Shown one piece after another: positions 1-17,552 of a DNA stretch of 22,162 nucleotides; within the stretch, counting starts at the first letter, position 1, and each line of letters opens with the position of its first letter. The DNA comes from a virus, in the IMG/VR virus record IMGVR_UViG_3300022690_001016, positions 1 through 22,162 of that record; one strand, 5' to 3'. The notes under the pieces are model-generated. The model was not told the DNA's origin and ran no database searches. It saw only the letters and a program-made list of their open reading frames with translations. The translations under genes and the position numbers were made by a program.

Positions 1-276
1 CGTAAAAAAATGGGAGTAGCTAGATGTGCTCGTGTGTCATACTTAACTCATGATGGAGTTCGTTCTGTAGATAAAGACATTGTTCTATACAATAGATTGC
101 TTACAGGTAGTGGACATGGCCACTGGAGTCCTTTTGAACATGTAGCTAGAGCTACGAGTGCAGAAGCTGAATATTATAACTTCATTACAAATAAATTTGA
201 AACACAATCAATATGGTGTGGAAATTTCCAAGGATGGATTCAGTATAGAAAACTTCATAAAGGTGAGTGTCAATAA
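1..276 (+). CDS. thyX: Flavin-dependent thymidylate synthase ThyX, C-terminal part (5' truncated)
   Basis: The reading frame is open from the window edge, so the start lies upstream; the ATG at 10 is probably internal. ThyX makes dTMP from dUMP using FAD, NADPH and methylene-tetrahydrofolate. The fragment shows an ARCARVSY block, a GHWSPFEH block and a closing GNFQGWIQYRK segment. These recur in the C-terminal portion of long phage-type ThyX proteins, where the ARVS/SPFEH elements reappear after the catalytic domain; that placement is from family knowledge. The RHR ThyX signature is not in the visible part. The stop TAA (274-276) overlaps the ATG of the next gene, so the two are translationally coupled. 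It fits with the downstream dUTPase, MazG and thymidine kinase as a thymidine-pool module. Confidence 0.75.
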   Translation, partial: RKKMGVARCARVSYLTHDGVRSVDKDIVLYNRLLTGSGHGHWSPFEHVARATSAEAEYYNFITNKFETQSIWCGNFQGWIQYRKLHKGECQ

Positions 277-1397
277 TGGACCTAAGCGCACTTAGTCCTT
301 CTAGAATAAAGACGACCAAAAATTGCGAGTTTAAATATTTCTTGCAATATCATCTTCGTCTGCCAGAATCACGAGAGAGTAATATCTACGGAATTAAGGG
401 AACCGCTGCGCACGAGGCATTAGAATTTTATGTAAACTATATACGTTGTGAGCGTGATTCTGAATTAAAAAATGAAATTAAAGAAGAAGAAAGAAACGAA
501 GATTACGAACAAGTTTTAAAAGATTTTTATGCCAAGACTGAGTTGTGGAAGCTAGACGATAGACAGGGAGAACACAGAAATGGAACTCCAAAAGGTTGGC
601 CGCATCCTGTTCAAAAGAGTTGCGACAGTTGCCCCTGGGCTTCTAAAGATGGTATGTGTGAAATTGCCAATATCCCATATGATAATGTAGATGGTTGTCC
701 AAGGCCAAATTTTGAAGATGATTTAAAAATAGTCAAAGATACAGTTGACAGCACTGAGTTTGAGATTTTCAAGGAGAAGATTTTAGGAACAGAAGTTAAG
801 TATACTATGGAGCTTGAAGGTGGAGTTAAAGCAAGAGGAGTTATTGACCTTGTTGTAGAAATTGATGATGATACCCTTGAGATTATAGACTATAAGAGCG
901 GCAATAGTACACTTAGCTATAATGCTGCTTTAACTGACCCTCAAATGAGAATATATGCCATGGTAGCTAAGAAATTATATCCCAAATATAGCACTTATAT
1001 GATGAGTTTATATTATGTTCGTAAGAAGAAAATGCTTACTTGTGTCTTTTCTGAGAAAGATGATGAGAAGACTCTTAAGGCAGTTCAAGTTCATTGGAGA
1101 GATATTAAGGCTAATAAAAATCCATACCGTCCCTCTCGCTCATTCTGGCTATGTAATTTCTGTGTGGGTTATGATAGATGTGGTCAGATTCAAAAAAATC
1201 ACACAATAAATGGCAAGTTTATTTTGCCGGTTATTAATTGTTCTCAAGCTTCTAGTGACACTAAATGTTGGGGTCCAATAAGTCCAGAGAATCCTAGTGA
1301 AGTAACAGCATTTAATACCCACGAAATGACTTATGCTTGCGCATCTCATTATGAGATTCATAAGGGTGGAGAATATATCCACGAGGAAGACAAATGA
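276..1397 (+). CDS. PD-(D/E)XK nuclease, Cas4/AddB-like, with probable Fe-S cluster
   Basis: This 373-residue protein resembles the RecB/AddB/Cas4 exonuclease fold. The nuclease core is D191 (GVID), then D205-Y206-K207 as the (D/E)xK, then Q223-x3-Y227, the QxxxY motif of RecB-family nucleases. C17 near the N-terminus and C293-x2-C296-x5-C302 near the C-terminus match the Cas4/AddB spacing that holds a 4Fe-4S staple. An extra insertion has C116, C119, C128 and C141, which could bind a second metal. A likely role is processing DNA ends in phage recombination or replication, since it sits directly before dnaE. I chose ATG 276 over the in-frame GTG at 267: the AAGGTG Shine-Dalgarno at 260-265 is ten bases from the ATG but touches the GTG. 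The fold is well supported; the substrate is unknown. Confidence 0.8.
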   Translation: MDLSALSPSRIKTTKNCEFKYFLQYHLRLPESRESNIYGIKGTAAHEALEFYVNYIRCERDSELKNEIKEEERNEDYEQVLKDFYAKTELWKLDDRQGEHRNGTPKGWPHPVQKSCDSCPWASKDGMCEIANIPYDNVDGCPRPNFEDDLKIVKDTVDSTEFEIFKEKILGTEVKYTMELEGGVKARGVIDLVVEIDDDTLEIIDYKSGNSTLSYNAALTDPQMRIYAMVAKKLYPKYSTYMMSLYYVRKKKMLTCVFSEKDDEKTLKAVQVHWRDIKANKNPYRPSRSFWLCNFCVGYDRCGQIQKNHTINGKFILPVINCSQASSDTKCWGPISPENPSEVTAFNTHEMTYACASHYEIHKGGEYIHEEDK

Positions 1398-3322
1398 AAA
1401 AATATCAAAAGGTACCAATGGCACATCTCCATGTTCACTCATCTTATAGTGAATTGGATGCCATAAGTAAAATACCACAATTAGTTAAACGTGCTTCTGA
1501 ATACTCACATTCTAGCTTAAGTTTAAGTGACCACGGGACCATCGCAGGGTTACCAGCTTTCCATTCGGAATGTAAGAAGCAAGGCATAAAGCCCATACTC
1601 TCATGTGAGTTTTATTTTGTGCCAGATGCTGTAAAACCTCCAGAGGATATGGACAAAGAAAAAAAGAAAGAAATACGAAAAAAGCAGCGCAAACGCGGCC
1701 ACATTGTTTTAATGGCCCAGGATTTTGAAGGATGGACTAATTTAAAGAAACTTGTCACTAGAAGCAATAAGCAGTTCTACTATATGCCAATTATTGGATA
1801 TAGTGACCTTAAGGAATTTAGCAACGGATTAATATGTCTTTCTGGATGCATGAAAAATCAAATAAAACAGGCAATAATTGCCGAGGACTATGATGTAGCT
1901 GTTGAACATTTATTAAAGTTTCAAAAAATCTTTGGTGACCGCTATTATTTAGAAATTCAGGATGGCGGTCTAGATGTGCAACTACATATTAATAGAGTAA
2001 TTAGAAGGTTAAGTGAGAAGTTTAATATACCTTTGGTTGCAACACAGGACGCTCATTATATTGATGCTAAGGATGCGGAATCTCATGAGGCCATTTGGGG
2101 AATGAGAACAAGACAAACTCTGGATATGCCATCTGAGGCTGATATTAAAACTGTGCGTGGAAGATGTGAAGATACTGTTTGTGGGAATAATTCACACAAA
2201 CACTCTCATAATATGGATGAGTGTAGAATGTATTATAGCACCAAGGAATTTTGGCTAAAGGATGGTCATCATATTTTGAATGAACCTCTTCATACTGAAT
2301 TTGGTGAAGAGCGCAAAAATGTTATTAGACAGAGTGAAGTTGAAGAAAGTGCAAAGATTGCAGATAGAATAAAAGAATATGATATTAAGACTGGACTACA
2401 TCTTCCAGAATATAAGTTCATTCCTGAGACTGCAATTGTAATAAAAGGCGAGACTCCTCAATTCAGTTACCTTGTACAGCTTGTTGAGCAAGGCTATGAA
2501 AAAGTTTATGATTACAAATATATGGATATGCCTTCAGAGCATAGAGATAGATTAGATAAAGAGTTTAGAGATATTAAAGATGCAAAACTTTCAGATTATT
2601 TCTTAATCGTGTGGGATATTATTAATGCTGCTATAGAGAAAAAGATTCGTGTTGGTCCAGGTCGTGGAAGTGCGGCGGGTTCAATGGTCTCATTTTGTTT
2701 AGGAATAACAAAGATTGACCCACTTAAATATGGATTAATTTGGGAACGATTCTATAACGCTGGGCGTAAAGGTTCTTTAGCTGATATTGATTCCGATTTT
2801 AGTAAGACCGGACGGCCAAAAATAATTAAATACATTTCCGAAAGGTTTGGTGAGGACCGTGTCGCTCAGATGGTTACCTTTAATTCCATGAAGGCAAAGG
2901 CAGCTCTTAAAGATACGGCTAAAGTATTGGGTAAATTTGGTATGGCATTTGAAGATGCTAATGTTATGACGAGATTTGTAGACAAAAAACCAAATACAAC
3001 TATTGAGAAGAGTTTGGAGAAAAGTGAGAAGCTCCAAGAGTATCAAGAGAAAAATCAGAAGCTATTTAGAATTGCTAAGATGCTTGAGGGATGTCCTAAG
3101 AGTCGTGGAACTCATGCTGCTGGAATTATTATATCAGACGAACCCTTTGATACAGGAAGCGTTCCGTTAAGATGGATGACTAATGATAAAAAGTTTGTAA
3201 CTGAGTTTGATGGTGAAACATTAGAGGGGTTAGGATTTTTAAAAATAGATGCGTTAGGTTTAAAAACGATGGATGTACTAAGTGATATAGAAAACGAAAT
3301 CAATAATGCCATACAAAAATGA
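1394..3322 (+). CDS. dnaE: DNA polymerase III alpha (DnaE), N-terminal half of a split gene: PHP and palm
   Basis: This is the first 642 residues of a family-C replicative polymerase. The PHP domain opens the protein, and all nine metal ligands can be aligned to those of bacterial DnaE enzymes with active PHP: H13, H15, D22, H47, E72, H103, C152, D219, H221. The palm has the GPGRGSAAGS signature, ADIDSDF with D464 and D466 (Pro of the usual PDxDxDF is Ala), and D619 in the KIDALGLKT block as third catalytic Asp. A Cys/His patch (C258, C263, H268, H270, H272, C277) is an uncommon insertion. The frame stops 23 residues after D619, in the linker before the fingers; the rest is encoded at 6096-7652. 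The two halves sum to about 1160 residues, the usual DnaE length. The start overlaps the nuclease stop (ATGA), and the last 17 bases overlap the homing endonuclease. Confidence 0.93.
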   Translation: MKKYQKVPMAHLHVHSSYSELDAISKIPQLVKRASEYSHSSLSLSDHGTIAGLPAFHSECKKQGIKPILSCEFYFVPDAVKPPEDMDKEKKKEIRKKQRKRGHIVLMAQDFEGWTNLKKLVTRSNKQFYYMPIIGYSDLKEFSNGLICLSGCMKNQIKQAIIAEDYDVAVEHLLKFQKIFGDRYYLEIQDGGLDVQLHINRVIRRLSEKFNIPLVATQDAHYIDAKDAESHEAIWGMRTRQTLDMPSEADIKTVRGRCEDTVCGNNSHKHSHNMDECRMYYSTKEFWLKDGHHILNEPLHTEFGEERKNVIRQSEVEESAKIADRIKEYDIKTGLHLPEYKFIPETAIVIKGETPQFSYLVQLVEQGYEKVYDYKYMDMPSEHRDRLDKEFRDIKDAKLSDYFLIVWDIINAAIEKKIRVGPGRGSAAGSMVSFCLGITKIDPLKYGLIWERFYNAGRKGSLADIDSDFSKTGRPKIIKYISERFGEDRVAQMVTFNSMKAKAALKDTAKVLGKFGMAFEDANVMTRFVDKKPNTTIEKSLEKSEKLQEYQEKNQKLFRIAKMLEGCPKSRGTHAAGIIISDEPFDTGSVPLRWMTNDKKFVTEFDGETLEGLGFLKIDALGLKTMDVLSDIENEINNAIQK

Positions 3323-4016
3323 TAGACCATGTATTTATGGAATTTACTGTAAGGGTAATGATAAACTTTATATAGGAAGTAGTGAAACTGTATATCATAG
3401 ATTAGCTATTCATAAAAGCTTGTTAAGAGGCAAAACTCATTTTAATATATATTTACAACGAGCTTATAACAAATATGGAGAGGATAGTTTTCAATTTACT
3501 GCTATTGAAGAAGTAGAATATATAGATAAAATACTGGAAAGAGAGCAATGGTATATAGATAGTTTAAATACATTAATTCCAAATGGTTTTAATATAGCAA
3601 AAGATACTAAAGCTCCAATGAGAGGTAGAAAACATTCTAAAGAAACTAAAGAGAGGCTTAAAATATTAAGTAGTGGTAAAAATAATGGAATGTATGGGAA
3701 GAAACATTCTAAAGATTCTATAGTAAGAATGTCTACAACTAGAAAAGAAAATATGAATGATGACCTTAGAAAAATTATGTCAGAAAATGCAAAGAAAAGA
3801 ATTGGTAAACTAAATGCATTTTATGGTAAATCACACAATGATAATACAAAAAATAAAATTAGAAATGCCCGCCATGTATTAAATAAAAGTCAGGTATTAG
3901 AAATTCGAGAACTATTAATACAAAAAATTACTCATAAAGAAATAGGTAATAAATTTGGAGTTTCTAGAACAGTTATTACAAATATTGCTTTAGGTAATAC
4001 ATATAAGGAGAAATAA
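3306..4016 (+). CDS. GIY-YIG homing endonuclease with NUMOD3 repeats (copy 1)
   Basis: This 236-residue free-standing endonuclease belongs to the I-TevI/Seg type. The N-terminal catalytic domain has Y11, YIG at 22-24, R32 and E80, all expected for activity. The first glycine of the GIY motif is Cys here (CIYGIY), while the paralogue at 9910 has Gly. NUMOD3-type DNA-binding repeats follow (RGRKHSKETKE, NGMYGKKHSKD, NAFYGKSHND), then a C-terminal helix-turn-helix-like stretch (KEIGNKFGVSRTVI). Its ATG lies inside the end of the N-terminal dnaE half, and it ends directly before dut. It therefore sits exactly at the dnaE break point, as expected if insertion of this gene caused the split. Such enzymes cut alleles lacking the insertion and spread by repair. 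It has the same GATC-free coding as its neighbours, so it is not a very recent arrival from a GATC-containing genome. Confidence 0.92.
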   Translation: MPYKNDRPCIYGIYCKGNDKLYIGSSETVYHRLAIHKSLLRGKTHFNIYLQRAYNKYGEDSFQFTAIEEVEYIDKILEREQWYIDSLNTLIPNGFNIAKDTKAPMRGRKHSKETKERLKILSSGKNNGMYGKKHSKDSIVRMSTTRKENMNDDLRKIMSENAKKRIGKLNAFYGKSHNDNTKNKIRNARHVLNKSQVLEIRELLIQKITHKEIGNKFGVSRTVITNIALGNTYKEK

Positions 4017-4469
4017 ATGAGTAGACCGCAAGTAAAAGTTCTATTAGATGGAGGACAATTGCCTGAGTACAAAAATCCTGGTGATGCTGGAGCAGATGTT
4101 CGTGTGATTCCAAATCCAAATACACACGATAAGGATTATTGTATTCAGCCAGGACAAACAGTCATGATTTCATTAGGATTTAGAATAGAGGTCCCAGAAG
4201 GATGGGAAATGCAAGTTCGTTCTAGAAGTGGTTTAAGTAAAAAAGGACTTGTTGTAGCAAATGCTCCAGGTACGATTGATTCTGGATATCGTGGACCATG
4301 TATGGTTTTATTGCATAATCAAAGTACAAAACCTTTTGTTGTACTTCCTAATGAGCGAGTTGCACAATTTGTATTAAAGCGAGCGCCACAAGCGAATTTT
4401 GTTTTGACTGATTCTTTGAGTGAAACGGAACGTGGAGAAGGTGGTTTTGGTTCAACAGGGACCAAATGA
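4017..4469 (+). CDS. dut: dUTPase (deoxyuridine triphosphatase, trimeric type)
   Basis: The enzyme hydrolyses dUTP to dUMP and pyrophosphate, keeping uracil out of DNA and feeding ThyX. All five trimeric-dUTPase motifs are visible in 150 residues: DAGAD at 23-27, RSRSG at 68-72, APGTIDSGYRG with catalytic D88 and Y91, PNERVAQ, and the Gly-rich closing RGEGGFGSTG arm. Length is typical of the family. The start has a strong AAGGAG at 4005-4010, six bases upstream and inside the end of the homing endonuclease gene. It lies within the insertion that separates the dnaE halves and is followed by mazG with a short overlap. Confidence 0.96.
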   Translation: MSRPQVKVLLDGGQLPEYKNPGDAGADVRVIPNPNTHDKDYCIQPGQTVMISLGFRIEVPEGWEMQVRSRSGLSKKGLVVANAPGTIDSGYRGPCMVLLHNQSTKPFVVLPNERVAQFVLKRAPQANFVLTDSLSETERGEGGFGSTGTK

Positions 4470-4801
4470 TGACTCCACAAGAATATATGGAGTTCACAAG
4501 AACAACTCGTTGTAAGATGGCAGTTGATAAACAAATGGTATTACCTATACTTTGCCTTGGATTAGCTGGTGAGACTGGTGAAGTTTGCGATAAATTAAAA
4601 AAGCATATCAGGGTTGGAGCAGATGTAAAGACTATTGACTCTGACGGTCTAAAAAAAGAACTTGGTGATATACTGTGGTATCTGACATCTATTACAGATG
4701 AATTGGGTTTTACATTGGATGATGTTATCAATGCTAATGTAGCAAAAATTCGTGGTCGTATTAAACGTAACATTCTTTATGGGTCTGGAGATAATAGATA
4801 A
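4466..4801 (+). CDS. mazG: MazG-like nucleotide pyrophosphohydrolase
   Basis: This 111-residue single-domain MazG-type all-alpha NTP pyrophosphatase has the metal-binding pattern ETGE (E36, E39) and ELGD (E65, D68), the EExxE...ExxD signature of the superfamily. Phage MazG proteins are thought to act on dNTPs or on host (p)ppGpp; the sequence does not tell which. Two adjacent ATGs are possible. The one at 4466 overlaps the dut stop as ATGA. The one at 4469 is better placed, seven bases after AGGGA at 4457-4461, and would remove one Met. It sits with dut and tdk in a nucleotide-pool group inside the split dnaE locus. Confidence 0.9.
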   Translation: MMTPQEYMEFTRTTRCKMAVDKQMVLPILCLGLAGETGEVCDKLKKHIRVGADVKTIDSDGLKKELGDILWYLTSITDELGFTLDDVINANVAKIRGRIKRNILYGSGDNR

Positions 4802-5280
4802 TGGGAAATTTTCTTAGAGACCTAGCAGAAAGTCAAGTAGCGGTTGATGCACTTCTTAATCATCTTATTGACCGTGGATTTGTTGCTCATGAGTTGGAAG
4901 GTAAGCGTGAGCAGAAGTGTGGTGATATTAGGTATTATCCTGTAGACTTAGAGACACCAGTTGATATTGAAGTTAAATTTGACAAGATGAGTAAACGAAC
5001 TGGAAATATGTGTTTTGAAATTGCAAACAATAAAGGACTGACTGGAATATCTAAAACTAAAGCAGACCGTATTGTATATATGTGTCCTACTTCTAGCGGA
5101 TATGATGTTTATGTTTTTGAACCAGACACTCTTAAATCATTCTTATTTGATGTTGCTAATACAAAAAAAATAACAATTAAAAATGGCGGCGATGGTAAAA
5201 GATTTACTCTAGCTTTAGTAAAAATTCATGTTATAGACAGTGAAAAGGTGTGGCTAGAAAAGTGGAGTATTGATGCCTAA
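4801..5280 (+). CDS. Small PD-(D/E)XK-like nuclease, possible Holliday junction resolvase type
   Basis: The 159-residue protein has an N-terminal helix with E10, then GD at 41-42, D55-I-E57-V-K59 as the core (D/E)xK, and a conserved-looking FEIANN...GLTGISKTKAD block at about 72-89. This order (helix Glu, D, ExK, then a G-[IL]-xx-TKAD strand) is that of small phage PD-(D/E)XK endonucleases, some related to junction resolvases. The assignment is by motif only, and the substrate is unknown. It starts on the mazG stop (TAATG) and overlaps the zinc-ribbon gene downstream. Its place next to polymerase and nucleotide genes favours a repair or recombination role over restriction. Confidence 0.6.
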   Translation: MGNFLRDLAESQVAVDALLNHLIDRGFVAHELEGKREQKCGDIRYYPVDLETPVDIEVKFDKMSKRTGNMCFEIANNKGLTGISKTKADRIVYMCPTSSGYDVYVFEPDTLKSFLFDVANTKKITIKNGGDGKRFTLALVKIHVIDSEKVWLEKWSIDA

Positions 5281-5563
5281 TTTTTTGTATAAATGTGAAT
5301 TATGTAAAGATATAATAGACATTCCTTTGCCTATTAGCTTTGACCCAAAAGAAACAATTAATCATCCAGGGCATAAGAATATTTGTCTTGGTTTATTTAA
5401 GAGAATTATGAGGGCTCCTGGAGCTGTAAAAGGTTTTAAAACTTTTGCCGGAGATTGGTTTAAGAAAACTTATGGTCACGATATAGCTAAACCTTATGAA
5501 GATAAGGCTCGCCAGAAGACTGATTATGAGACTATGAAGCGCGAATTGGATAAGGATAAATAA
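5273..5563 (+). CDS. FmdB-like zinc-ribbon protein
   Basis: This is a 96-residue protein with an N-terminal YKCELC knuckle (C8, C11) followed by a second, partly degenerate half (HPGHKNICLGLFKRI) in which His and a single Cys may replace the usual Cys pair. This layout resembles the FmdB zinc-ribbon family, common in phages and of unknown function. The C-terminal third is charged and probably helical. I chose ATG 5273 over the in-frame TTG at 5270 because GGAG at 5264-5267 is spaced five bases from the ATG. It overlaps the stop of the small nuclease and ends on the tdk start (TAATG). It may be a DNA- or protein-binding accessory; no catalytic motif is visible. Confidence 0.55.
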   Translation: MPNFLYKCELCKDIIDIPLPISFDPKETINHPGHKNICLGLFKRIMRAPGAVKGFKTFAGDWFKKTYGHDIAKPYEDKARQKTDYETMKRELDKDK

Positions 5564-6099
5564 TGCTCACTGTTATTGTTGGAAGTATGATGTCTGGCAA
5601 ATCATCTAGACTGATATCGATAATTAATTCACATATAATTGCTGGGAATTCGGTTATTGTTTTTAAACCTCAAAAAGATACACGGTGTGGTAACAAGATT
5701 ATTACTCATTGTGGCCGCGATTATCCTGCCCATTCAATTAAAAATTCTACAGATGCCTTGAACACATATGTTGACGCTCACGACGTGGTTTGTTTTGATG
5801 AAGCACAATTTTTTGATAACTATTTACCTTATGAAGTAGACAATCTATTGAAGTGTGGATATGAAGTTATATGTGCTGGATTATCACAAGATTCATTTGG
5901 TCAACCATTTGGACCAATGCCACAACTGCTTTGTAAGGCAGATAAAATAATACATTTAACTGCTGTTTGTGTAAAATGTAAATCTATTGCTGCAGCAACA
6001 AGAACTTTTAGAAAAGTTAGTGCGAAGGAACAGGTTTTCATTGGTGGCACCAGTATGTATGAGGCTCGCTGTTTTGATTGCTGGAAAGAAGATAAATGA
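5563..6099 (+). CDS. tdk: Thymidine kinase, type II
   Basis: The enzyme phosphorylates thymidine to dTMP, a salvage route parallel to ThyX. The P-loop is GSMMSGKS at 7-14, the Walker B/Asp-Glu is FDEAQFF with D79-E80, and the C-terminal zinc-binding lasso has C136-x2-C139 and C170-x2-C173, the standard type II pattern. Length (178 residues) is close to the bacterial and phage TK family. The start overlaps the zinc-ribbon stop, and its own stop overlaps the ATG of the C-terminal dnaE half. That half is thus translated by coupling to tdk, far from the N-terminal half. Confidence 0.95.
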   Translation: MLTVIVGSMMSGKSSRLISIINSHIIAGNSVIVFKPQKDTRCGNKIITHCGRDYPAHSIKNSTDALNTYVDAHDVVCFDEAQFFDNYLPYEVDNLLKCGYEVICAGLSQDSFGQPFGPMPQLLCKADKIIHLTAVCVKCKSIAAATRTFRKVSAKEQVFIGGTSMYEARCFDCWKEDK

Positions 6100-7652
6100 T
6101 GAAGTTTAAGTGCGGTTGTGAATTCGACAAGCTTGACTTTGACAAAGTCCCATTAGACTGCGAGGCCACGTGGGATTTAATATGTTCGGGCTACACACGA
6201 GGTATCTTCCAGCTAGAAGGAAATCTTGGGAAGAGGTTTTCTAAGGAGATTAAACCTAGAAATATTGAAGAGTTGAGTGACCTTGTAAGTCTTATTCGCC
6301 CTGGTTGTCTTGAGGCTGAGTATCGTGAAGACCCAGAAAAGCCTGGAAAAATGTGGTCAATCACTACAACATATATAAAAGTAAAGGACAAAATAGTAGA
6401 GCCAGAGTATGCTCATCCGGTTTTAGAGCCAATATTTAGTCCCACATATAGTGTTCCAGTTTATCAAGAACAAATTATGAGAATTTGTACAGATTTTGCT
6501 GGATTTACCCTACAGGAAGCCGATAAAACTAGGAAGGCTGTTGGTAAAAAAATAGAAAAGCTTATGGAGGAAGTTAAAGAAAAGTTTATTAAGGGTGCTA
6601 TAAAACAAGGACATAGTAAAGAACTTTCTGAAACTATATTTGGTTGGATTAACAAGTTTAGTTCTTATGGCTTCAATAAGTCGCATGGTGTAAGTTATGC
6701 TATGATTGGATATCAAACTGCATATGCTAAGCGTCACTTTCCGCTTCAATACTTTAAGGCTATGTTAACTCACTCTGAAGATAAACAAGATGCATTGGAC
6801 GAAGTGCAAGCTTTGGTGCACGAGGCCAAACTATTTGATATTAAAATTAATCCACCTTGCCTAAAGCTTTGTAATCCAAACTTTGATATTCAGGATGATA
6901 ATAATATAGCATTTGGTTTAGGACACATTAAAGGTGTAGGTAAAAGCTCTATAGCTGCAATTAAAAAAATAGCCAAAATTAATTCTACCAATGATATATT
7001 TAAGAAAAGTTTTACTAAAGGTAGTAAGGTTAAGCGTAATGTAATGGAGGCATTAATTAAATCAGGGGCTTTAGATTACTTTGGTGAAGATAGACTTCAG
7101 TTGATTGTTAAATATAAAATACTATGTGGATTAACAGATAGAGAACGTGATGTTGTATTTAAAGAGTTTGTTAAAGATGGTTTATTTGAAGCATTTAAAT
7201 TGTTAAAAGACTCTAAAGTTCCGCGCGGCGCTGCTAGAAAGCAAAAAGTCAAGGATTTAATAGTAGATTGTAAGAAGGAATTGCATGGAAATACTAAACG
7301 CACTTCTATTGGGTATGAGAAGTTCTACTTAGGCATTCCGCTAAGTGGAAGCCTAGTAGAATTGTCTAATAATCCGTGGGTCAATATTAAATGCCGCCAA
7401 TTAAATAAACTGAGAGATGGCGTTCAAGGATGCCTTGGGGTTGTTATTGATAAGATAAAGAAAATTAAAGATAAGAATCATAATGAAATGTGTTTCCTGA
7501 CCGTCTCTGATGATACCTATCTAATTGATGCCGTAGTTTTCTCATCCGTCTATAAGCATTATTCATGGATTATTGAGGAGGGAAAACCGGTATTGCTGAC
7601 AGGCAAAAAATCAAAAGATAGTTTTCTTGTTAGAAAAATTGAACATTTGTAA
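6096..7652 (+). CDS. dnaE: DNA polymerase III alpha (DnaE), C-terminal half: fingers, HhH and OB region
   Basis: This 518-residue frame picks up where the product of 1394-3322 stops. Conserved DnaE blocks run in order: FDKVPLD..., GIFQLEG, LVSLIRPG, YQEQIMRI, RKAVGKK, the GFNKSHGVSYA finger block, then the HIKGVGKSS helix-hairpin-helix (duplex DNA binding) and a C-terminal OB-like stretch (GVVIDKIKKIKD ... FLTVSDDTYLIDAVVF). No catalytic Asp is here, so it needs the N-terminal half. The first residues (MMKFKCGCEF) correspond to the variable linker before the IPLD motif of intact DnaE, and there is no intein C-terminal motif. No clear clamp-binding peptide was recognised at the end. The ATG at 6096 overlaps the tdk stop (ATGA), and 6099 is an equally possible start. 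Confidence 0.92.
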   Translation: MMKFKCGCEFDKLDFDKVPLDCEATWDLICSGYTRGIFQLEGNLGKRFSKEIKPRNIEELSDLVSLIRPGCLEAEYREDPEKPGKMWSITTTYIKVKDKIVEPEYAHPVLEPIFSPTYSVPVYQEQIMRICTDFAGFTLQEADKTRKAVGKKIEKLMEEVKEKFIKGAIKQGHSKELSETIFGWINKFSSYGFNKSHGVSYAMIGYQTAYAKRHFPLQYFKAMLTHSEDKQDALDEVQALVHEAKLFDIKINPPCLKLCNPNFDIQDDNNIAFGLGHIKGVGKSSIAAIKKIAKINSTNDIFKKSFTKGSKVKRNVMEALIKSGALDYFGEDRLQLIVKYKILCGLTDRERDVVFKEFVKDGLFEAFKLLKDSKVPRGAARKQKVKDLIVDCKKELHGNTKRTSIGYEKFYLGIPLSGSLVELSNNPWVNIKCRQLNKLRDGVQGCLGVVIDKIKKIKDKNHNEMCFLTVSDDTYLIDAVVFSSVYKHYSWIIEEGKPVLLTGKKSKDSFLVRKIEHL

Positions 7653-7659
7653 TTCACTC

Positions 7660-7687
7660 TTGTCGTTTTTAAAATTCAACCTATAAT
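7660..7687 (+). promoter_or_regulatory. Sigma-70-like promoter for ssb
   Basis: TTGTCG at 7660-7665, a 16-base spacer, then a perfect TATAAT at 7682-7687. It lies in the first real non-coding gap of the window, between the dnaE C-terminal half and ssb. The promoter at 17481-17508 has the same spacer length and the same ACC before its -10, which supports both. The expected transcript start is near 7694, at the foot of the hairpin. Confidence 0.6.
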
Positions 7688-7694
7688 GTTATTT

Positions 7695-7710
7695 GAGGCA
7701 ATCTGGCCTC
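7695..7710 (+). promoter_or_regulatory. Short GC hairpin at the 5' end of the ssb transcript
   Basis: GAGGC (7695-7699) pairs with GCCTC (7706-7710) around a six-base loop and is followed by a T-rich GTTTGTTTTG. It lies a few bases after the predicted -10, so it would sit at the extreme 5' end of the ssb message and could protect it. For transcripts coming from upstream it could act as a weak intrinsic terminator. The stem is short and the T-run is interrupted, so the terminator reading is uncertain. Confidence 0.4.
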
Positions 7711-7740
7711 GTTTGTTTTGAAACTATTAAGGAGAATGTT

Positions 7741-8151
7741 ATGTTTTATGTGAATGAAGTTCGTTTACTTGGTCGTGCCACCAAGGATGCTGAGTTTAAG
7801 GTTATTGGTAAGGATAGTAAATTAGCTACTTTTCGTCTAGTATCTAATAGGCGCATCAAGAGACGTGATGGAACATATGGTGATAAAGCCACATTTGTTG
7901 ATTGCGAGGTTTGGGGCCAGAGGGCAGAGTATGCCAGTGACAATGTTAAGAAGGGAACTCCTGTTCTTATTGCTGGTCAACTAGAAACTGATGAGTGGGA
8001 GAAGGATGGACAGAAGCGTAGTAAGTTGAAGATTTACTGTAATAGTATTCAAGTTGACCGTCCAAGAAGCGAAAGCGCCGAAGGTGGTCAGGAACAAGGT
8101 GAGCCTGTAACTGCAGGAACTTCTAGCACTAACGACGATGTTCCCTTTTAA
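7741..8151 (+). CDS. ssb: Single-stranded DNA-binding protein
   Basis: This 136-residue bacterial-type SSB has an OB-fold over about residues 1-105 (NEVRLLGRATKDAEFK..., VDCEVWGQRAEYA..., GTPVLIAGQLETDEW), a flexible Gly/Ser/Glu-rich linker, and the acidic tail DDVPF at 132-136. That tail matches the DDIPF tip that recruits host or phage replication proteins. I chose ATG 7741 because AAGGAG at 7729-7734 lies six bases upstream; the longer in-frame TTG start would fall at the predicted transcription start and inside the hairpin. It has its own promoter and is the only replication gene separated from the upstream operon by a gap. Confidence 0.95.
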   Translation: MFYVNEVRLLGRATKDAEFKVIGKDSKLATFRLVSNRRIKRRDGTYGDKATFVDCEVWGQRAEYASDNVKKGTPVLIAGQLETDEWEKDGQKRSKLKIYCNSIQVDRPRSESAEGGQEQGEPVTAGTSSTNDDVPF

Positions 8152-8242: not shown

Positions 8243-9913
8243 ATGGTAAAACGCAGAATTTTATTTTGTGGGGAGAGCAGCTGGCTTTCAACGGGGTTTG
8301 CTATCTATAATAGGGAAATCTTGCAAGGACTTCACGCTACAGGAAAATATATATTAGCTGAAATGGGTTCATATGGTTCTGAAAATATGCCACAAGCTCA
8401 GAAACTTCCTTGGAAATTTTATGGAGTTCTTCCAAAAACAGAACAAGAAAAAAAGATGTATGAGTCGAATCAAGCTAATGCATTTGGTCAATATAAAATA
8501 GATGCTGTTGTTGCAGATTTTCAGCCTGATGTGATATTTTCTTGTACTGACCCATGGATGACATTACACCTTCAAGCTTGTAAATTTAGAGATAACTATA
8601 AACTAGTTTTGATGCCCACGGTCGATTCTGCCCCACAAAGAAAAGATTGGCTTAGTGGGTTATTTGACAAAGCAGACCATTTACTTACATATAGTAGATA
8701 TGGTAAGCGTGTTCTAAATGATGCTGGATTAAAAGTAAATAGCGTTCCTAGCCCTGGTGTTTGTCTTGATAAGTTTAAACCTTTGGATAAACAAACCATT
8801 AGAGATAAATATCAAATAAAACCATCCCTTCTTATTATTGGAACTGTAATGAGAAACCAAAAGAGAAAACTTTTTCCAGAACTTTTTGAAATTTATGCTA
8901 GTCTTCGTAAGAAATATAGGATGACTAAGAAAAATAAAGAAGATGGTAAAGTAATAAGAATTTATCATAGCGCCCTTCTTTGCCATACTAGTTGGCCAGA
9001 TAATGGCTGGAATATACCAGAGCTTCTAGAGAGACATGGCTTAACACGTCACGTAATATTTACGTATAAGTGTGAGGCATGTAAAGCAGTATTTCATTCG
9101 TGGTTTATTCCATGTGACCAGAAAGGTTTTGGAGTATGCAGAATTTGTGGTGAGAAGCAGACACATATGCCAAATACTCACAGTGGAGTTAGTCGAGAAC
9201 AGCTAGCTGAGATTTACAATTTAATGGATATCTATGTTCAGCCTGCTATCTGTGAAGGATGGGGTCTTCCCATTATGGAAGCTAAGGCTTGTGGTGTTCC
9301 GGGCTTATATCAGAATTATTCAGCCATGGAAGACCATGTTCAAAATGGCGGAGGTTTACCAATTAAAATTGGTCGTTTCTATACTGAGTGTGAAACTATG
9401 GCAATTCGTTCTTTACCAGATAATACAGATTTTGAGAAAAAGCTTGAAATGCTTTGTTTAGATTCTAAGAAGAGAAAGAGACTAGCTAAAGAAGCTAGAA
9501 AATGTGCAGTAAAGATGCATAATTGGGATTTGTCTGTTAGAAAAATTGAGAAATTATTTGATACAATGAAACTTAAGGACAGAGATACAAGTTGGGATAG
9601 ACAGCCAAAGTTTAAGTATTTAACAGAACAACGTCCTCCTGCAAATTATTCAAATCAAGATTTTATTCACTGGTGTTACACAAACATTTTAGGAAGAGTG
9701 GCTGACGAAAAGGGATTTAATGATTGGATGAATTCTCTACAAAAGAATGAAGATAGAAATTCTGTTGAACAATTCTTTAGGAATGAGATTAAGGGTCATA
9801 ATATTTTTGAAGAAATAAGGTGGAAAAATTCACTCAAGCTTCGCAATCTTTCACTAGAGATTGAAGAAGTTGTTAGCTCATATTCTAATGCTATACCTGG
9901 AACGGTATTATGA
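8243..9913 (+). CDS. GT4-type glycosyltransferase with zinc-ribbon insertion and DUF4214-like tail
   Basis: This 556-residue protein is longer than a plain GT-B enzyme. The N-terminal Rossmann half covers about 1-180. The C-terminal half carries the EX7E donor-binding motif (E338 and E346 in CEGWGLPIMEAKACG). Between them is a Cys cluster, C277-x2-C280, C291 and C299-x2-C302, that looks like a zinc ribbon inserted in the donor domain. Residues about 465-556 (HWCYTNILGRVADEKGFNDW and following) resemble DUF4214, a domain often fused to glycosyltransferases. It has a strong AAAGGAG before the ATG and opens the cluster. Donor and acceptor cannot be told. The stop overlaps the start of the second homing endonuclease. 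Confidence 0.85.
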   Translation: MVKRRILFCGESSWLSTGFAIYNREILQGLHATGKYILAEMGSYGSENMPQAQKLPWKFYGVLPKTEQEKKMYESNQANAFGQYKIDAVVADFQPDVIFSCTDPWMTLHLQACKFRDNYKLVLMPTVDSAPQRKDWLSGLFDKADHLLTYSRYGKRVLNDAGLKVNSVPSPGVCLDKFKPLDKQTIRDKYQIKPSLLIIGTVMRNQKRKLFPELFEIYASLRKKYRMTKKNKEDGKVIRIYHSALLCHTSWPDNGWNIPELLERHGLTRHVIFTYKCEACKAVFHSWFIPCDQKGFGVCRICGEKQTHMPNTHSGVSREQLAEIYNLMDIYVQPAICEGWGLPIMEAKACGVPGLYQNYSAMEDHVQNGGGLPIKIGRFYTECETMAIRSLPDNTDFEKKLEMLCLDSKKRKRLAKEARKCAVKMHNWDLSVRKIEKLFDTMKLKDRDTSWDRQPKFKYLTEQRPPANYSNQDFIHWCYTNILGRVADEKGFNDWMNSLQKNEDRNSVEQFFRNEIKGHNIFEEIRWKNSLKLRNLSLEIEEVVSSYSNAIPGTVL

Positions 9914-10629
9914 AGTTAAGTAATAATCCAGGAATATACTTTATCCATTGTAAAGGAAATGATAAGTATTATATAGGCAGTAGTTTAAAAGTTAAATCTA
10001 GAATAACTGAACATAAACGTCAGCTTAGAAAAGATTGCCATTTTAATAAATATTTACAAAGAGCATGGAATAAATATTCTAAGGATATGTTTGAATTTGA
10101 TATTATAAAGATTTTTGATAATAATATAACACTTTTTCAACTTAGAGAAATTGAAGGTCAATATATTAAAAAGTATGATTCTTTTTTGCCACATGGATTT
10201 AACATAGTAGAAGACCCAAAAGTTGGCCCAAGGCTTTTAGGTTCTGACAATGGAATGTATGGAAAGACACACTCTATTGAAGCGCGCAATAAAATATCTA
10301 TGGCCCACAAAGACATACCTCTTTCTCAATCTCATAAAGAGAATATATCTGAAGCAACAAAAGGTGAGAAAAATCATTTCTATGGAAAGAACCACTCTAA
10401 AGAGACTAAAGAAAAAATGTCTAAAAATCATGCTAATGTTTCTGGTAATAAAAATCCTTTTTATAGAAAAGGGAAGCTTAGCACTAAAGATGTTGTTGAA
10501 ATAATTGAGACATTAAAGTCTAATAAATTTTCACATAGACAAATAGCTAATAAGTATAATGTTTCTCGTCAAATAATTACAGGCATTAATATAGGAGTTA
10601 TTTTTAAAGATGTTCCAAGACAATCCTAA
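9910..10629 (+). CDS. GIY-YIG homing endonuclease with NUMOD3 repeats (copy 2)
   Basis: This 239-residue paralogue of the enzyme at 3306-4016 shares long runs by eye, such as CKGNDK-YYIGSS versus CKGNDK-LYIGSS, then HFN-YLQRA and NGMYGK. The catalytic set is intact: G8-I-Y10, YIG at 21-23, R31 and E82. Three NUMOD3-like repeats (NGMYGKTHS, NHFYGKNHS, NPFYRKGKLS) and a C-terminal helix-turn-helix-like segment (HRQIANKYNVSRQII) should bind DNA. It begins inside the stop of the upstream glycosyltransferase (ATGA) and its last 20 bases overlap the start of the next one, so it is wedged between two transferases with no spare sequence. The neighbours look whole, so a split here is less clear than at dnaE. 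Confidence 0.92.
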   Translation: MKLSNNPGIYFIHCKGNDKYYIGSSLKVKSRITEHKRQLRKDCHFNKYLQRAWNKYSKDMFEFDIIKIFDNNITLFQLREIEGQYIKKYDSFLPHGFNIVEDPKVGPRLLGSDNGMYGKTHSIEARNKISMAHKDIPLSQSHKENISEATKGEKNHFYGKNHSKETKEKMSKNHANVSGNKNPFYRKGKLSTKDVVEIIETLKSNKFSHRQIANKYNVSRQIITGINIGVIFKDVPRQS

Positions 10630-11767
10630 ATTATTATATATTGCTCCTTTGAAAGATTTCAGTGGTTACGCTAATAGTGCCAGAAACTATATTAAAGCCC
10701 TTGATTTAATTGGTATGAACATTGTAACTCGAACACTTAATTATGATGGTGCTCAACACAATCTTTCTCCAAGATTAAAAGAATTAAATAATCGTAATAC
10801 AGATAATATAGATATAGTACTTCAGCACACAACTGGTAACGAAACTCAAAGGAAGGATGGTGTTTTCAACGTTCTTTATTTTGCATGGGAAACAGATAAG
10901 GTTCCTACTGAATGGGTTAATAAAATTAATCAAATGGATTTGGTGCTCGTTCCATGTGAAGAGAATATACGTGCTTCTAGAAGGTCAGGTGTGGTTGTAC
11001 CAATGCACAAAATTCCCCATACTTTTGACGCTAAGAAGTATAAGAAAAAGATTTCTCCTTATTTTGTTCCAGGACTTGAGGATGGCTTTAAATTTTTGGC
11101 AATATGTCAATATTCAAAGAAGAAAGGTATAGACCCATTACTTAAGGCTTATCTTAGTGAATTTAATAAAGAAGATAATGTTGCGCTTATATTAAAAATT
11201 TATGTTGGTTCTTCGGATACTAACGATGATAAGAATAAGATTCAACATTTAATAAATGCAATGAAAGGAATTTTAAGAATTCCAGAATATCCACCTATTA
11301 TTCTAATTCATGATGTTTTATCGGATGATGATATTGAAAAATTATATAAAACAGCAGACTGTTACGCTCTACCATCTCGTGGTGAAGGCTGGGGTATTCC
11401 TCATTTTGATGCACTTGGATTTGGACTACCAGCTATAGCAACTAATTGGGGAGGTCCGACAGAATTTATAAATAAAGATTGCGGCTGGCTTGTTGATTAT
11501 CATATGTCTCCTGTTGTTGAAATGCCACATCCTCATACGTTTATGTATACTGGTAAAGATAACTGGGCAGAGCCTCATGTTAATCATTTAAAAGCTTCTA
11601 TGAGAGAAGCATATGAAATATGGAAAAATAATAAAGAGAAATGGAAGAGTATGCAAGAAGCTGCTAGAGAAAGAGTAAATGATTTCTCATATGACAAGAT
11701 TGGTAAAGAAATGAAGGGCGTAATAATGAGTTACTATAATAAATGGAAGGCAGCAAATGTTTGTTAA
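10610..11767 (+). CDS. GT4-type glycosyltransferase
   Basis: This 385-residue GT-B enzyme has an N-terminal LLYIAPLKDFSGYANSAR opening typical of the acceptor domain and a C-terminal donor site, SRGEGWGIPHFDALGFG, in which E259 is followed eight residues later by Asp instead of the usual second Glu. GGPTEFI follows, as in sugar-nucleotide-binding GT4 enzymes. The start lies inside the end of the homing endonuclease gene, and the stop overlaps the next start by 11 bases. Specificity is unknown. The cluster context suggests successive sugar additions to one glycan. Confidence 0.85.
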   Translation: MFQDNPKLLYIAPLKDFSGYANSARNYIKALDLIGMNIVTRTLNYDGAQHNLSPRLKELNNRNTDNIDIVLQHTTGNETQRKDGVFNVLYFAWETDKVPTEWVNKINQMDLVLVPCEENIRASRRSGVVVPMHKIPHTFDAKKYKKKISPYFVPGLEDGFKFLAICQYSKKKGIDPLLKAYLSEFNKEDNVALILKIYVGSSDTNDDKNKIQHLINAMKGILRIPEYPPIILIHDVLSDDDIEKLYKTADCYALPSRGEGWGIPHFDALGFGLPAIATNWGGPTEFINKDCGWLVDYHMSPVVEMPHPHTFMYTGKDNWAEPHVNHLKASMREAYEIWKNNKEKWKSMQEAARERVNDFSYDKIGKEMKGVIMSYYNKWKAANVC

Positions 11768-12836
11768 TTTAATTGCCCCAATATCATATCTAGGTTATGG
11801 GGTTGTGGGCTATAATGTTTTAAAAGGACTATTTGAACGCGGCCACTTTGTATCTTATTTTCCAATTGGTCAGCCACAGTGGGATGGCGATAATGATTTT
11901 GCCGCTCTTATTAAAAAAACCACCGAGAATGCAAAACTTTATAATAAAGATGCCAATTGCATAAGAATCTGGCACCAACACGAGCTAGATAAATTTGTCG
12001 GTAAAGGACAAAGAGTAGGTTGGCCTATCTTTGAACTAGATACGTTTAACCAAGTTGAACTTCATCAACTTATGAATGTTGATAGATTGTTTGTATGTTC
12101 AAATTGGGCTAAGAAAGTTTGTGAAGATAATAAAATAAGCGTACCAATTGATATTGTTCCACTTGGTGTTGATACAAGAATTTTCTTCAATGATGAGAAT
12201 GATAAGAAAACTCGCCCCTATTGGACCAAAAATACTACAGTATTTTTAAATGCAGGAAAGTGGGAAGTCAGAAAAGGCCACAATGAACTTTGTGAAGCAT
12301 TCTCTAAGGCATTCACGAAGGATGATGATGTTGAATTGTGGATGCTCAATGATAATCCGTTCATAAATAATGAGAATGAGGTATGGAAGCGCAAATATAT
12401 TAGCAGCCCAATGGGTGAGAAAATAAAGATTTTGCCGCGAGTTAATACCCAGGCCCAACTCAAGCAGCTATTTAATCATGTTGACATAGGTTGTTTCCCA
12501 TCGCGCGCGGAGGGTTGGAACCTAGAGATTCTAGAATTAATGGCGTGCGGCGCTCGTATTATTGCCACGGATTATTCCGGCCACACGGAGTTTCTTAATA
12601 AAGATAATGCTTTTCTACTAGAAGCAACTGGAATGGAAAGTGCACAAGATGGCAAGTGGTTCCATGGTCAGGGTAATTGGTGTACTTTTGATGTTGACCA
12701 ACTTGTTGAGGCTATGCGTTCGGCTCATGACCAGAAGCAAAGCAGTAGTTATACTGTTTCTGATGAGATATTGAAGAAAACAGTAGATAAATTTACTTGG
12801 ACTAAATCGATAGAAAAGATTGAACAAGTATTATGA
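11757..12836 (+). CDS. GT4-type glycosyltransferase
   Basis: This 359-residue GT-B enzyme has a glycine-rich start (PISYLGYGVVGYNVLKGL), a VPLGVDTRIF linker segment typical of GT4, and the EX7E donor motif (E252, E260 in RAEGWNLEILELMACG) followed by a SGHTEFL loop. It seems related to the preceding gene, probably by an old duplication. The 11-base overlap with the upstream gene implies coupled translation. A patch with GC-rich runs (about 12480-12590) stands out from the AT-rich surroundings but is in frame and conserved in motif. Confidence 0.85.
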   Translation: MFVNLIAPISYLGYGVVGYNVLKGLFERGHFVSYFPIGQPQWDGDNDFAALIKKTTENAKLYNKDANCIRIWHQHELDKFVGKGQRVGWPIFELDTFNQVELHQLMNVDRLFVCSNWAKKVCEDNKISVPIDIVPLGVDTRIFFNDENDKKTRPYWTKNTTVFLNAGKWEVRKGHNELCEAFSKAFTKDDDVELWMLNDNPFINNENEVWKRKYISSPMGEKIKILPRVNTQAQLKQLFNHVDIGCFPSRAEGWNLEILELMACGARIIATDYSGHTEFLNKDNAFLLEATGMESAQDGKWFHGQGNWCTFDVDQLVEAMRSAHDQKQSSSYTVSDEILKKTVDKFTWTKSIEKIEQVL

Positions 12837-13087
12837 GTAATCCTATTTGGTTAGGACCTGGAATGAAGGTTCAAATTCAACATCCAAAATTAAGTTATTC
12901 AGAATCTAATCCAATATCTAATTTATCTCACGCAGATACTGGTATTGTAATTAAATATATTGAAACTTGCGGGCGATTTAAAAATGATAATCCTAAGTTT
13001 TATGACCACAAATATTTAGTTAAATTTGGCAACCTAAATATAGAGGTATTTGAAGGCGACTTATATTGGGAGAGTAAGGAAAATTAA
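12833..13087 (+). CDS. Small protein of unknown function within the glycosyltransferase cluster
   Basis: I do not recognise this 84-residue protein. It looks like a small beta-rich fold: GMKVQIQHP near the start, a TGIVIKYI strand, and HKYLVKFGNLNIEVFEGDLYW near the end. This is reminiscent of SH3-like or KOW-like domains, but without a firm motif. There is no signal peptide, membrane segment or Cys pair. It is tightly packed (ATGA overlap upstream, TAATG downstream) and uses the same codon pattern as its neighbours, which supports it being real. Confidence 0.6.
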   Translation: MSNPIWLGPGMKVQIQHPKLSYSESNPISNLSHADTGIVIKYIETCGRFKNDNPKFYDHKYLVKFGNLNIEVFEGDLYWESKEN

Positions 13088-14121
13088 TGGACTTTTCATC
13101 AGGACAAGTTAATAGAATATTAGAAGAAGTCAATTTCAAACAGAAAATAGTTCTTGTTAAATGTCTTGCTGTGCATAATGAAGAAGGTTGGGTTGAATAC
13201 AATCTCAAGAACAATTATGACGAATTCGATATTATTCGGGTCGTAGAAGGAGCTGTTGAAGGAAGACCAGCTAGCACACCAAATGGTCATTCTACAGACA
13301 AAACTCTTGAGATTATTAGGAACTTCCCAGACCCAGCTAATAAGATAGAATTAATAACAGCAGACAGATACTTTAAATCTTTAGAGGAACAAAAACAAAC
13401 TTTCTTAGATTATGCAAATGAAGATGAGTGGTTATTTATAGTAGATTGTGATGAATTTTATTTAGAAGGAGAGATTAATCGTGTTAGAAAAGCTATTGAA
13501 AAGCATCCAAAGGCTGTTGAAATTATTCCGACGTTCCTCCACTTCTACAGAGATTTCTTCCACCTTAGAGCACCACATCCACAGTGGGGCATACAACACC
13601 AGAGAATCATTCGATATCAAGCAGGACTCAGATATCATACACATCCAGTGGCAACGAACGCCCAAGGGAAATGTACATATTTCACACCAGAATATCAGCC
13701 AGGGAGATACACAATACCAGGCTTGTATATCTTCCACTATGGACACGCAAAAGGTGAAAAGTTCCAAAAAATGAAGGCTGAGTTTTATAATAAAGAACTT
13801 GCAAAATATGAGGGCAGGGGCGGCAATGCTGCTAATGAGTTTATGCTTAAGCTAGATGAGTTTGTTAATTACACGGAAGACCTTAATGAGATTTTAAATT
13901 ACAATGGACCACATCCTGCAGTAATGGTGAACCATCCTCAAAGAAAGCTTATAAGTGAACACTATATGATTGCTCACTTAGCTCAGAATGCGGAAACACC
14001 AAAAAATTGGAAAGAAGATAAAGTTTACAGTAAAGATAAGCTTCCTAATATTGTTGTATGGATGGAGCCTCATTGGGGAACTCAGCGTATGGCTCCATTT
14101 TATAATGTAATTGAGGTGTGA
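13087..14121 (+). CDS. GT-A glycosyltransferase (GT2/GT92-like)
   Basis: The 344-residue protein begins with a nucleotide-binding strand (IVLVKCLAVHNEEGWVEY), then a segment with the wording of GT2 relatives (HSTDKTLEIIRNF), and a metal-binding DCDEF motif with D120 and D122. A His/Trp-rich middle (FHLRAPHPQWG, HPVATNA, IFHYGHAKGEKF) resembles the acceptor side of GT2/GT92-like transferases. It starts on the stop of the small gene. No membrane segment is seen, so it should be soluble. Donor and acceptor are unknown. Confidence 0.8.
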   Translation: MDFSSGQVNRILEEVNFKQKIVLVKCLAVHNEEGWVEYNLKNNYDEFDIIRVVEGAVEGRPASTPNGHSTDKTLEIIRNFPDPANKIELITADRYFKSLEEQKQTFLDYANEDEWLFIVDCDEFYLEGEINRVRKAIEKHPKAVEIIPTFLHFYRDFFHLRAPHPQWGIQHQRIIRYQAGLRYHTHPVATNAQGKCTYFTPEYQPGRYTIPGLYIFHYGHAKGEKFQKMKAEFYNKELAKYEGRGGNAANEFMLKLDEFVNYTEDLNEILNYNGPHPAVMVNHPQRKLISEHYMIAHLAQNAETPKNWKEDKVYSKDKLPNIVVWMEPHWGTQRMAPFYNVIEV

Positions 14122-14975: not shown

Positions 14976-14982
14976 TAAGCTA

Positions 14983-17484: not shown

Positions 17485-17508
17485 CCATATATAGTTTCGA
17501 CCTATTAT
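17481..17508 (+). promoter_or_regulatory. Sigma-70-like promoter for the nucleotide-sugar operon
   Basis: TTGACC at 17481-17486 (overlapping the protease stop), a 16-base spacer, and TATTAT at 17503-17508 preceded by GACC. It has the same architecture as the promoter at 7660-7687 and lies in the third non-coding gap. An AGGAG Shine-Dalgarno at 17538-17542 then serves the ATG at 17553. No terminator is visible before it. Confidence 0.5.
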
Positions 17509-17552
17509 TAGAATAGAGGTAGTCTGTTTAAATTAATAGGAGTATCGTCGGA

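What the first reader, a model, noticed from the sequence alone, without database searches (positions are those of the whole stretch)
1394..7652. Replicative DNA polymerase split in two genes by a 2.8 kb insertion of homing endonuclease and nucleotide genes
The N-terminal half ends 23 residues after the last catalytic Asp, and the C-terminal half resumes in the same variable linker before the IPLD/FQLE blocks, so nothing essential is missing. A GIY-YIG gene sits exactly at the break, followed by dut, mazG, two small genes and tdk. Splits caused by homing endonucleases are known in phage genes such as nrdA and T4-type polymerase, but a PHP-DnaE split between palm and fingers that also holds a nucleotide-pool cassette seems unusual. 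The halves must assemble in trans.
Basis: partly seen in the sequence, partly recalled or inferred. Interest (0 to 1): 0.82.

Follow-up and report, generated by a model that had tools for sequence, protein, structure and literature searches.

The report
Phage replicase built from two proteins
This uncultured phage, like dozens of its environmental relatives, encodes its only known DNA-copying enzyme as two separate proteins cut at one flexible joint of the normal single chain, with other useful genes lodged in the gap; the two halves are both preserved by selection and must presumably join to work.

Summary
A complete PHP-type PolIII alpha (DnaE) is encoded by two genes: polN (1394-3322, PHP+palm+thumb) and polC (6096-7652, fingers+HHH+OB). 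They are 2.77 kb apart and together miss about two residues of E. coli DnaE (polN aligns to 1-578, polC from 581). The proposed cause is not supported: ten related contigs carry the same split and a dut/orf159/orf97 cassette (tdk in nine) without the GIY-YIG gene, including the nearest relative, L014. The GIY-YIG gene is a late arrival at the polN|dut boundary. The split is neither an artefact nor a one-off: 63 IMG/VR contigs break at the same linker (profile 564-586 of 1063), against 0 of 78 bacterial dnaE loci. Cultured Mycobacterium phage Fowlmouth (gp85/gp86) has the same break with no insert. Both halves are under strong purifying selection (dN/dS 0.03-0.08), and no other-family polymerase was found in long relatives. 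In most split loci a DnaQ-like proofreading gene lies between the halves; the window lineage has none there but keeps a complete PHP exonuclease site. At least three independent splits at this linker are supported. Best reading: a stable two-subunit C-family replicase assembling in trans. Assembly is inferred, not shown.

The parts
1394..3322 (+). polN: N-terminal half of PolIII alpha (PHP, palm, thumb); catalytic D466, D468, D619; full PHP metal set H13 H15 D22 H47 E72 H103 C152 D219 H221
   Evidence: Pfam PHP 2.8e-39 and DNA_pol3_alpha 1.7e-76; phrog_405 37-616; AlphaFold pLDDT 88, aligned to 2hnh 1-578 with Z 40.2; catalytic Asps D in 62/62 split sequences; PHP motif
3306..4016 (+). GIY-YIG + NUMOD3 free-standing homing-type endonuclease gene, recent insertion exactly at the polN|dut boundary
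   Evidence: Pfam 4e-11 and 2.8e-12; absent at this junction in all other split loci; empty site seen in L014, L002, L003, L004
4017..4469 (+). dut, dUTPase
   Evidence: Pfam 8.2e-24; PRK00601 9.3e-43; conserved in the slot across the window clade
4466..4801 (+). MazG-like pyrophosphohydrolase, variable cassette member (not in L002)
   Evidence: Pfam 1e-11; no match in relatives
4801..5280 (+). orf159, unassigned protein with invariant D42...E57-x-K59, PD-(D/E)XK-like signature; homologues found only between polymerase halves
   Evidence: alignment A7; distribution; no database family
5270..5563 (+). orf97, small zinc-ribbon-like protein
   Evidence: homologue L011 matches PF09723 Zn_ribbon_8 1.1e-8
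5563..6099 (+). tdk, thymidine kinase
   Evidence: Pfam 2.1e-37
6096..7652 (+). polC: C-terminal half of PolIII alpha (fingers, HHH, OB), start overlaps tdk stop (ATGA)
   Evidence: Pfam finger 1.2e-41, HHH_6 1.1e-14, OB 2.6e-7; phrog_405 623-1081; AlphaFold pLDDT 91, aligned from E. coli residue 581
267..1397 (+). upstream neighbour, PD-(D/E)XK exonuclease of the conserved replication module, overlaps polN start by 4 nt
   Evidence: PDDEXK_1 2.5e-26; same position in split and intact relatives
7693..8151 (+). downstream neighbour, single-stranded DNA-binding protein (true start probably ATG 7741)
   Evidence: TIGR00621 2.6e-26; conserved synteny

Best explanation
The locus encodes a stable two-subunit form of PolIII alpha. 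polN supplies the PHP exonuclease site, the thumb and all three catalytic aspartates; polC supplies the fingers, HHH and OB domains. The break sits in the linker between the palm's last strand/helix and the fingers (E. coli about residues 575-583). The subunits are made from one tightly overlapping operon, together with dNTP-pool enzymes, and are inferred to join in trans into one active polymerase. The split is old and shared by the whole phage lineage; the gap between the halves behaves as a gene-acquisition slot. In the window lineage it holds dut, orf159, orf97 and usually tdk, and proofreading is probably done by the intact PHP site. In a larger related lineage it usually holds a DnaQ-like proofreading exonuclease. 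The GIY-YIG gene is a late homing insertion into the polN|dut boundary of this phage. Shown: anatomy, complementarity, conservation, selection, recurrence, absence of another polymerase in long relatives. Inferred: physical association, activity, PHP proofreading, operon-driven stoichiometry.
For: Complementary halves on profiles and structures. Catalytic Asps D in 62/62 split sequences. Same split with the cassette in L002-L005, L011-L015 and L042. 63 IMG/VR contigs split at profile 564-586 of 1063 versus 0/78 bacterial dnaE loci. dN/dS 0.03-0.08 for both halves. Halves co-diverge as in intact enzymes (r 0.86 split; 0.77 intact phage; 0.87 bacteria). Of 12 contigs searched, 11 hold a single fingers domain and the twelfth (L071) looks like a genome read past its end; no PolA or PolB in nine long contigs. 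No intron found by Rfam. GIY-YIG absent at the junction in every other split locus. A cultured phage, Fowlmouth, carries the same break, so it is compatible with a viable phage. Among split loci the PHP site is disrupted only where DnaQ is present, apart from L092 and the truncated L090.
Against: No biochemical evidence; the two chains could not be co-folded with the tool on hand. None of the contigs is certified complete, so a further polymerase elsewhere is not strictly excluded. The OB domain of polC fits solved structures only with domain movement (rmsd 3.4-8.4). It remains possible that the phage relies on the host polymerase, although both halves are strongly conserved.
Confidence: 0.83

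Rival explanations
1. The GIY-YIG homing endonuclease now at the break inserted into an intact dnaE and split it, carrying or later attracting the cassette.
For: The gene lies exactly at the end of polN; homing endonucleases split nrdA, gene 60 and possibly gene 43 in T4-like phages (PMC2988022).
Against: All other window-clade relatives, including the nearest one, L014, have the split and the cassette without it; the empty site polN-SD-dut is visible in four of them. GIY-YIG genes sit at other places in L004, L011, L209 and in the window itself.
Confidence: 0.04
2. An older mobile nuclease split the gene and has been lost or remains as orf159, a PD-(D/E)XK-like protein found so far only between polymerase halves.
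For: orf159 homologues occur in the slot in the window clade, in L209/L212 and in L075, and nowhere in the flanks of intact relatives; invariant D...ExK; other endonucleases (LAGLIDADG, HNH, Endonuclease VII) also visit the slot.
Against: No database match or activity for orf159; most of the large clade has DnaQ instead; Fowlmouth is split with no insert at all.
Confidence: 0.22
3. The halves are rejoined into one chain: an intron or trans-splicing, or a split intein.
For: True inteins occur within these polymerases in L004, L014, L042, L031 and L033; split DnaE inteins are known in cyanobacteria.
Against: polN stops 5 residues after the last residue conserved in its clade; median 3, at most 26, beyond the profile match across split loci, leaving no room for an intein half; no Rfam intron; the intervening DNA is overlapping conserved genes.
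Confidence: 0.03
4. The polymerase is decaying and the phage uses the host replicase.
For: Some phages lack a polymerase (general knowledge).
Against: dN/dS 0.03-0.08 on both halves in relatives, all catalytic residues kept in 62/62, both models confident.
Confidence: 0.04
5. On origin: one ancestral split in the main lineage followed by restoration of an intact gene in some branches, rather than repeated splitting there.
For: AU test does not reject the window clade, L209/L212 and the large clade as one clade (p 0.21 without L209/L212, p 0.17 with them); orf159 is shared by three split groups.
Against: Best trees place intact L031/L033/L053 and L055/L061/L082 among them; including L092 as well is rejected (p 0.0005), and Fowlmouth is far away.
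Confidence: 0.4

Closest known systems
Mycobacterium phage Fowlmouth gp85/gp86 (NC_048734)
   Same: PolIII alpha in two genes broken at the same palm|fingers linker, in a cultured phage
   Different: Genes overlap by 4 bp with nothing between them; only distantly related (28-32% identity); independent split by the tree
Microbacterium cluster EF phages (AnnaSerena, PMC7302621), Microbacterium phages Dauntless and Sparcetus, Mycobacterium phage MontyDev
   Same: Two genes for PolIII alpha; noted for cluster EF in PMC7302621
   Different: In Dauntless, Sparcetus and MontyDev the break lies between PHP and palm (profile about 281-315), not palm|fingers
Split gp43 (PolB) and split nrdA/gene 60 of T4-like phages (PMC2988022)
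   Same: A vital phage enzyme split into two chains, sometimes with an adjacent homing endonuclease; split NrdA is fully functional
   Different: Different enzyme families; here the endonuclease is not common to the split lineage and a metabolic cassette fills the gap
Cyanobacterial split DnaE (split-intein)
   Same: Same enzyme family encoded by two genes
   Different: There the chains are spliced together by intein halves; here no intein parts flank the break, which lies elsewhere (position from general knowledge)
Two-gene archaeal PolB of Methanothermobacter (from general knowledge)
   Same: Natural two-chain replicative polymerase
   Different: B family, cellular, different break

Membership tests
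C-family DNA polymerase (PolIII alpha / DnaE) | Palm with three catalytic Asp | tested here: met
   D466, D468, D619; D in 62/62 split sequences
C-family DNA polymerase (PolIII alpha / DnaE) | PHP domain with the HHDHEH[C/H]DH metal site | tested here: met
   HHDHEHCDH in the window and its clade (motif definition in PMC12926913)
C-family DNA polymerase (PolIII alpha / DnaE) | Fingers, HHH and OB domains in order | tested here: met
C-family DNA polymerase (PolIII alpha / DnaE) | Single polypeptide chain (usual, not catalytic, feature) | tested here: not met
   Two genes 2.77 kb apart; 78/78 bacterial loci are single-chain at this point
Homing-endonuclease-split gene (Aeh1 nrdA/mobE type) | The endonuclease gene at the break explains the split: relatives without it have an intact gene | tested here: not met
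   Relatives without the GIY-YIG gene have the same split
Homing-endonuclease-split gene (Aeh1 nrdA/mobE type) | Split product is active as two chains | not testable with these tools
   needs biochemistry
Free-standing GIY-YIG homing endonuclease | GIY-YIG catalytic domain with NUMOD DNA-binding motif, inserted where relatives have an empty site | tested here: met
Free-standing GIY-YIG homing endonuclease | Cleaves the empty allele | not testable with these tools
   needs cleavage assay
Split intein | Intein halves at the ends of the fragments | tested here: not met
   polN ends 5 residues after its last clade-invariant residue, and polC has only about 11 residues before conserved sequence
Group I/II intron-interrupted gene | Intron RNA between the exons | tested here: not met
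   No Rfam match in 3200-6300 even at E 1, nor at gathering thresholds in 8 relatives

The most novel reading that the evidence does not exclude
The palm|fingers linker is a natural break point of C-family replicases. Two-chain PolIII alpha arose at least three times in phages, and one large uncultured lineage runs on an ordered operon alphaN - (proofreader or dNTP genes) - alphaC. The gap acts as a slot for replication-fidelity and nucleotide genes, and the replicase is assembled as its parts are translated.
Probability: 0.5. Interest if true: 0.8.

Novelty: new variant of a known kind. Interest (0 to 1): 0.62.

Why it matters
Replicative C-family polymerases are treated as single chains whose palm and fingers form one unit (E. 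coli palm-fingers were fitted as one rigid body in PMC4703070). A widespread, selected, recurrent two-chain form would show the active site can be shared between subunits, and would offer natural parts for split-polymerase designs. It would also give a natural test of how PHP and DnaQ proofreading trade places: among split polymerases the PHP site is broken only where a DnaQ-like gene is present (with two explained exceptions). It shows as well that annotation of phage genomes by single-gene markers can count such phages wrongly.

Tried and rejected
blastn to INPHARED gave nothing. A single-sequence polN scan of IMG/VR gave no relatives. A search for named phages close to the split lineage found none above about 35% identity. 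The genome-contig scan returned ordinary bacterial dnaE, used as a control and outgroup, but no host or prophage. Rfam found no introns. orf159 had no Pfam, PADLOC or PDB match worth the name. I first read the PHP/DnaQ relation as an exact exchange (0/47 with the cysteine form); the published motif also allows His at that position, so 13 of the 47 DnaQ-bearing loci count as PHP-active, and the claim was weakened accordingly. A clamp (PF02767) search in long relatives found none, which may only mean divergence or host use. Single origin of the main split groups could not be rejected.

Full report
What is there. The window is a whole 22,162-bp IMG/VR record of a phage. Genes 267-7652 form a run of overlapping or abutting genes: exonuclease, polN, GIY-YIG, dut, mazG, orf159, orf97, tdk, polC. 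polN carries PHP and palm; polC carries fingers, HHH and OB. Both map to one DnaE profile without overlap or loss: phrog_405 37-616 and 623-1081, TIGR00594 3-573 and 579-1022. AlphaFold models from family alignments are confident (pLDDT 88 and 91, pTM 0.88 and 0.86). The polN model aligns to E. coli DnaE 1-578 (2hnh, Z 40.2, 564 residues, rmsd 2.8) and to Taq 5-641; polC aligns from E. coli 581 and Taq 639. The cut therefore lies in the linker after the palm's last strand and helix, before the fingers.

It is shared and old, and the GIY-YIG gene is not. IMG/VR relatives L002, L003, L004, L005, L011, L012, L013, L014, L015 and L042 have the same break. Between the halves lie dut, orf159 and orf97 in all of them, and tdk in all but L042. 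None has a GIY-YIG gene there; in four checked junctions polN runs straight into dut behind a GGAGGA-type ribosome site, and the window has the GIY-YIG gene at exactly that point. GIY-YIG genes of this type sit at other sites in L004, L011 and L209, and at 9910-10629 of the window. mazG is also not constant. True mobile interruptions exist: inteins at GRG|SAA in polN of L004 and at FNK|SH in polC of L004, L014 and L042, with a polN interruption at the same GRG|SAA point in L011. They fall in catalytic motifs, unlike the split.

The wider survey. A scan with a diverse polC alignment gave 80 more loci. With a full-length DnaE profile (1063 positions) the palm end and fingers start lie in different ORFs in 63 distinct IMG/VR contigs (a few near-identical) plus the window and Fowlmouth. 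Over the 61 loci tabulated, the N-side ends at 568-579 and the C-side starts at 564-586. Seventy-eight of 78 informative bacterial loci are uninterrupted there. Gaps run from 36 nt to 5.7 kb. These are the best-scoring loci, so the numbers are not a prevalence. The commonest gene in the gap is a DnaQ-like exonuclease; others include UDG, macro domain, D12 methyltransferase, Endonuclease VII, HNH and LAGLIDADG. Neighbours exo and gt1, and often ssb and gt2, are kept in split relatives and in the nearest intact ones alike.

Cultured precedent. Mycobacterium phage Fowlmouth gp85 and gp86 break at the same linker with a 4-bp overlap. Microbacterium and other actinophages break between PHP and palm; two PolIII alpha genes were noted for Microbacterium cluster EF in PMC7302621. 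No paper found in the searched library describes the palm|fingers split or this lineage; subscription journals are mostly not in that library.

Function. dN/dS for pairs of relatives is 0.025-0.078 in both halves. Catalytic Asps are D in 62/62 split sequences. Distances of palm and C-half correlate as in intact enzymes. Of 12 contigs searched, 11 hold one fingers domain each; L071 has a second copy 146 kb away, which suggests a genome read past its end. No PolA or PolB was found in the nine long contigs tested. So the two halves are very probably the phage replicase and act together. That they bind each other is inference from architecture.

Proofreading. The nine-residue PHP site (HHDHEHCDH) is complete in the window clade, and no DnaQ-like match was found in the five window-clade contigs tested. 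Among 47 split loci with DnaQ between the halves, 34 have a disrupted PHP site and 13 keep the allowed His variant; among 15 without, 13 are complete, L090 is truncated, and L092 has an exonuclease elsewhere in its record. The PHP site thus seems to be given up only where DnaQ is available, as known in bacteria (PMC12926913, PMC5636811).

Origins. Parsimony on 106 sequences needs four changes, all forced by supported branches; a careful tree and later trees place intact lineages among split ones. Holding all sampled splits but Fowlmouth as one clade is rejected (p 0.0005); without L092 it is not (p 0.17-0.21). So at least three independent splits (main lineage, L092, Fowlmouth) are supported, with L092 on a long branch, and up to five on the best trees.

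orf159. This protein has invariant D42, E57, K59 (PD-(D/E)XK-like) and was found only between polymerase halves: the window clade, L209, L212 and L075 (L202 is cut off by its contig end). It may be a replication nuclease or a relic of the element that first split the gene; this is a lead, not a result.

Verdict.

Noticed in passing
window 9910-10629: Second GIY-YIG + NUMOD3 gene, related to the one at 3306-4016, inserted between two glycosyltransferase genes with short overlaps.
   Followed up: partly
L004 about 2500-3850 and 7240-8000; L014 7190-8000; L042 7555-8340; L011 3968-5250: Inteins interrupting the split polymerase halves at GRG|SAA (L004) and FNK|SH (L004, L014, L042), some with HNH motifs; L011 is interrupted at the same GRG|SAA point, not inspected residue by residue.
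   Followed up: partly
window 4801-5280; L209, L212, L075 homologues: orf159: uncharacterised PD-(D/E)XK-like family seen so far only between PolIII alpha halves.
   Followed up: partly
L104, L106, L112, L117, L119: PolIII alpha with the PHP domain missing or reduced and a DnaQ-like gene directly upstream (in L112/L117 between a PHP remnant and the palm).
   Followed up: partly
L031 6648-12404 and 13031-17734; L033 6732-13655: Intact dnaE relatives carrying two to three inteins each; L031 glycosyltransferase also carries an intein.
   Followed up: no
L014 5406-6047: Free-standing LAGLIDADG endonuclease gene between orf97 and tdk inside the polymerase gap.
   Followed up: no
L071 contig (206 kb): Two copies of fingers and exonuclease matches about 146 kb apart, probably a circular or redundant genome read past its end, or a real duplication.
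   Followed up: no
window 8243-22078: Long run of glycosyltransferases, epimerase, methyltransferase and sugar-nucleotide genes plus a trypsin-like protease ORF (16546-17484), suggesting glycan decoration; the first glycosyltransferase is syntenic with the replication module in most relatives.
   Followed up: no
L042 5061-6160: Two dut-like genes in tandem within the polymerase gap.
   Followed up: no
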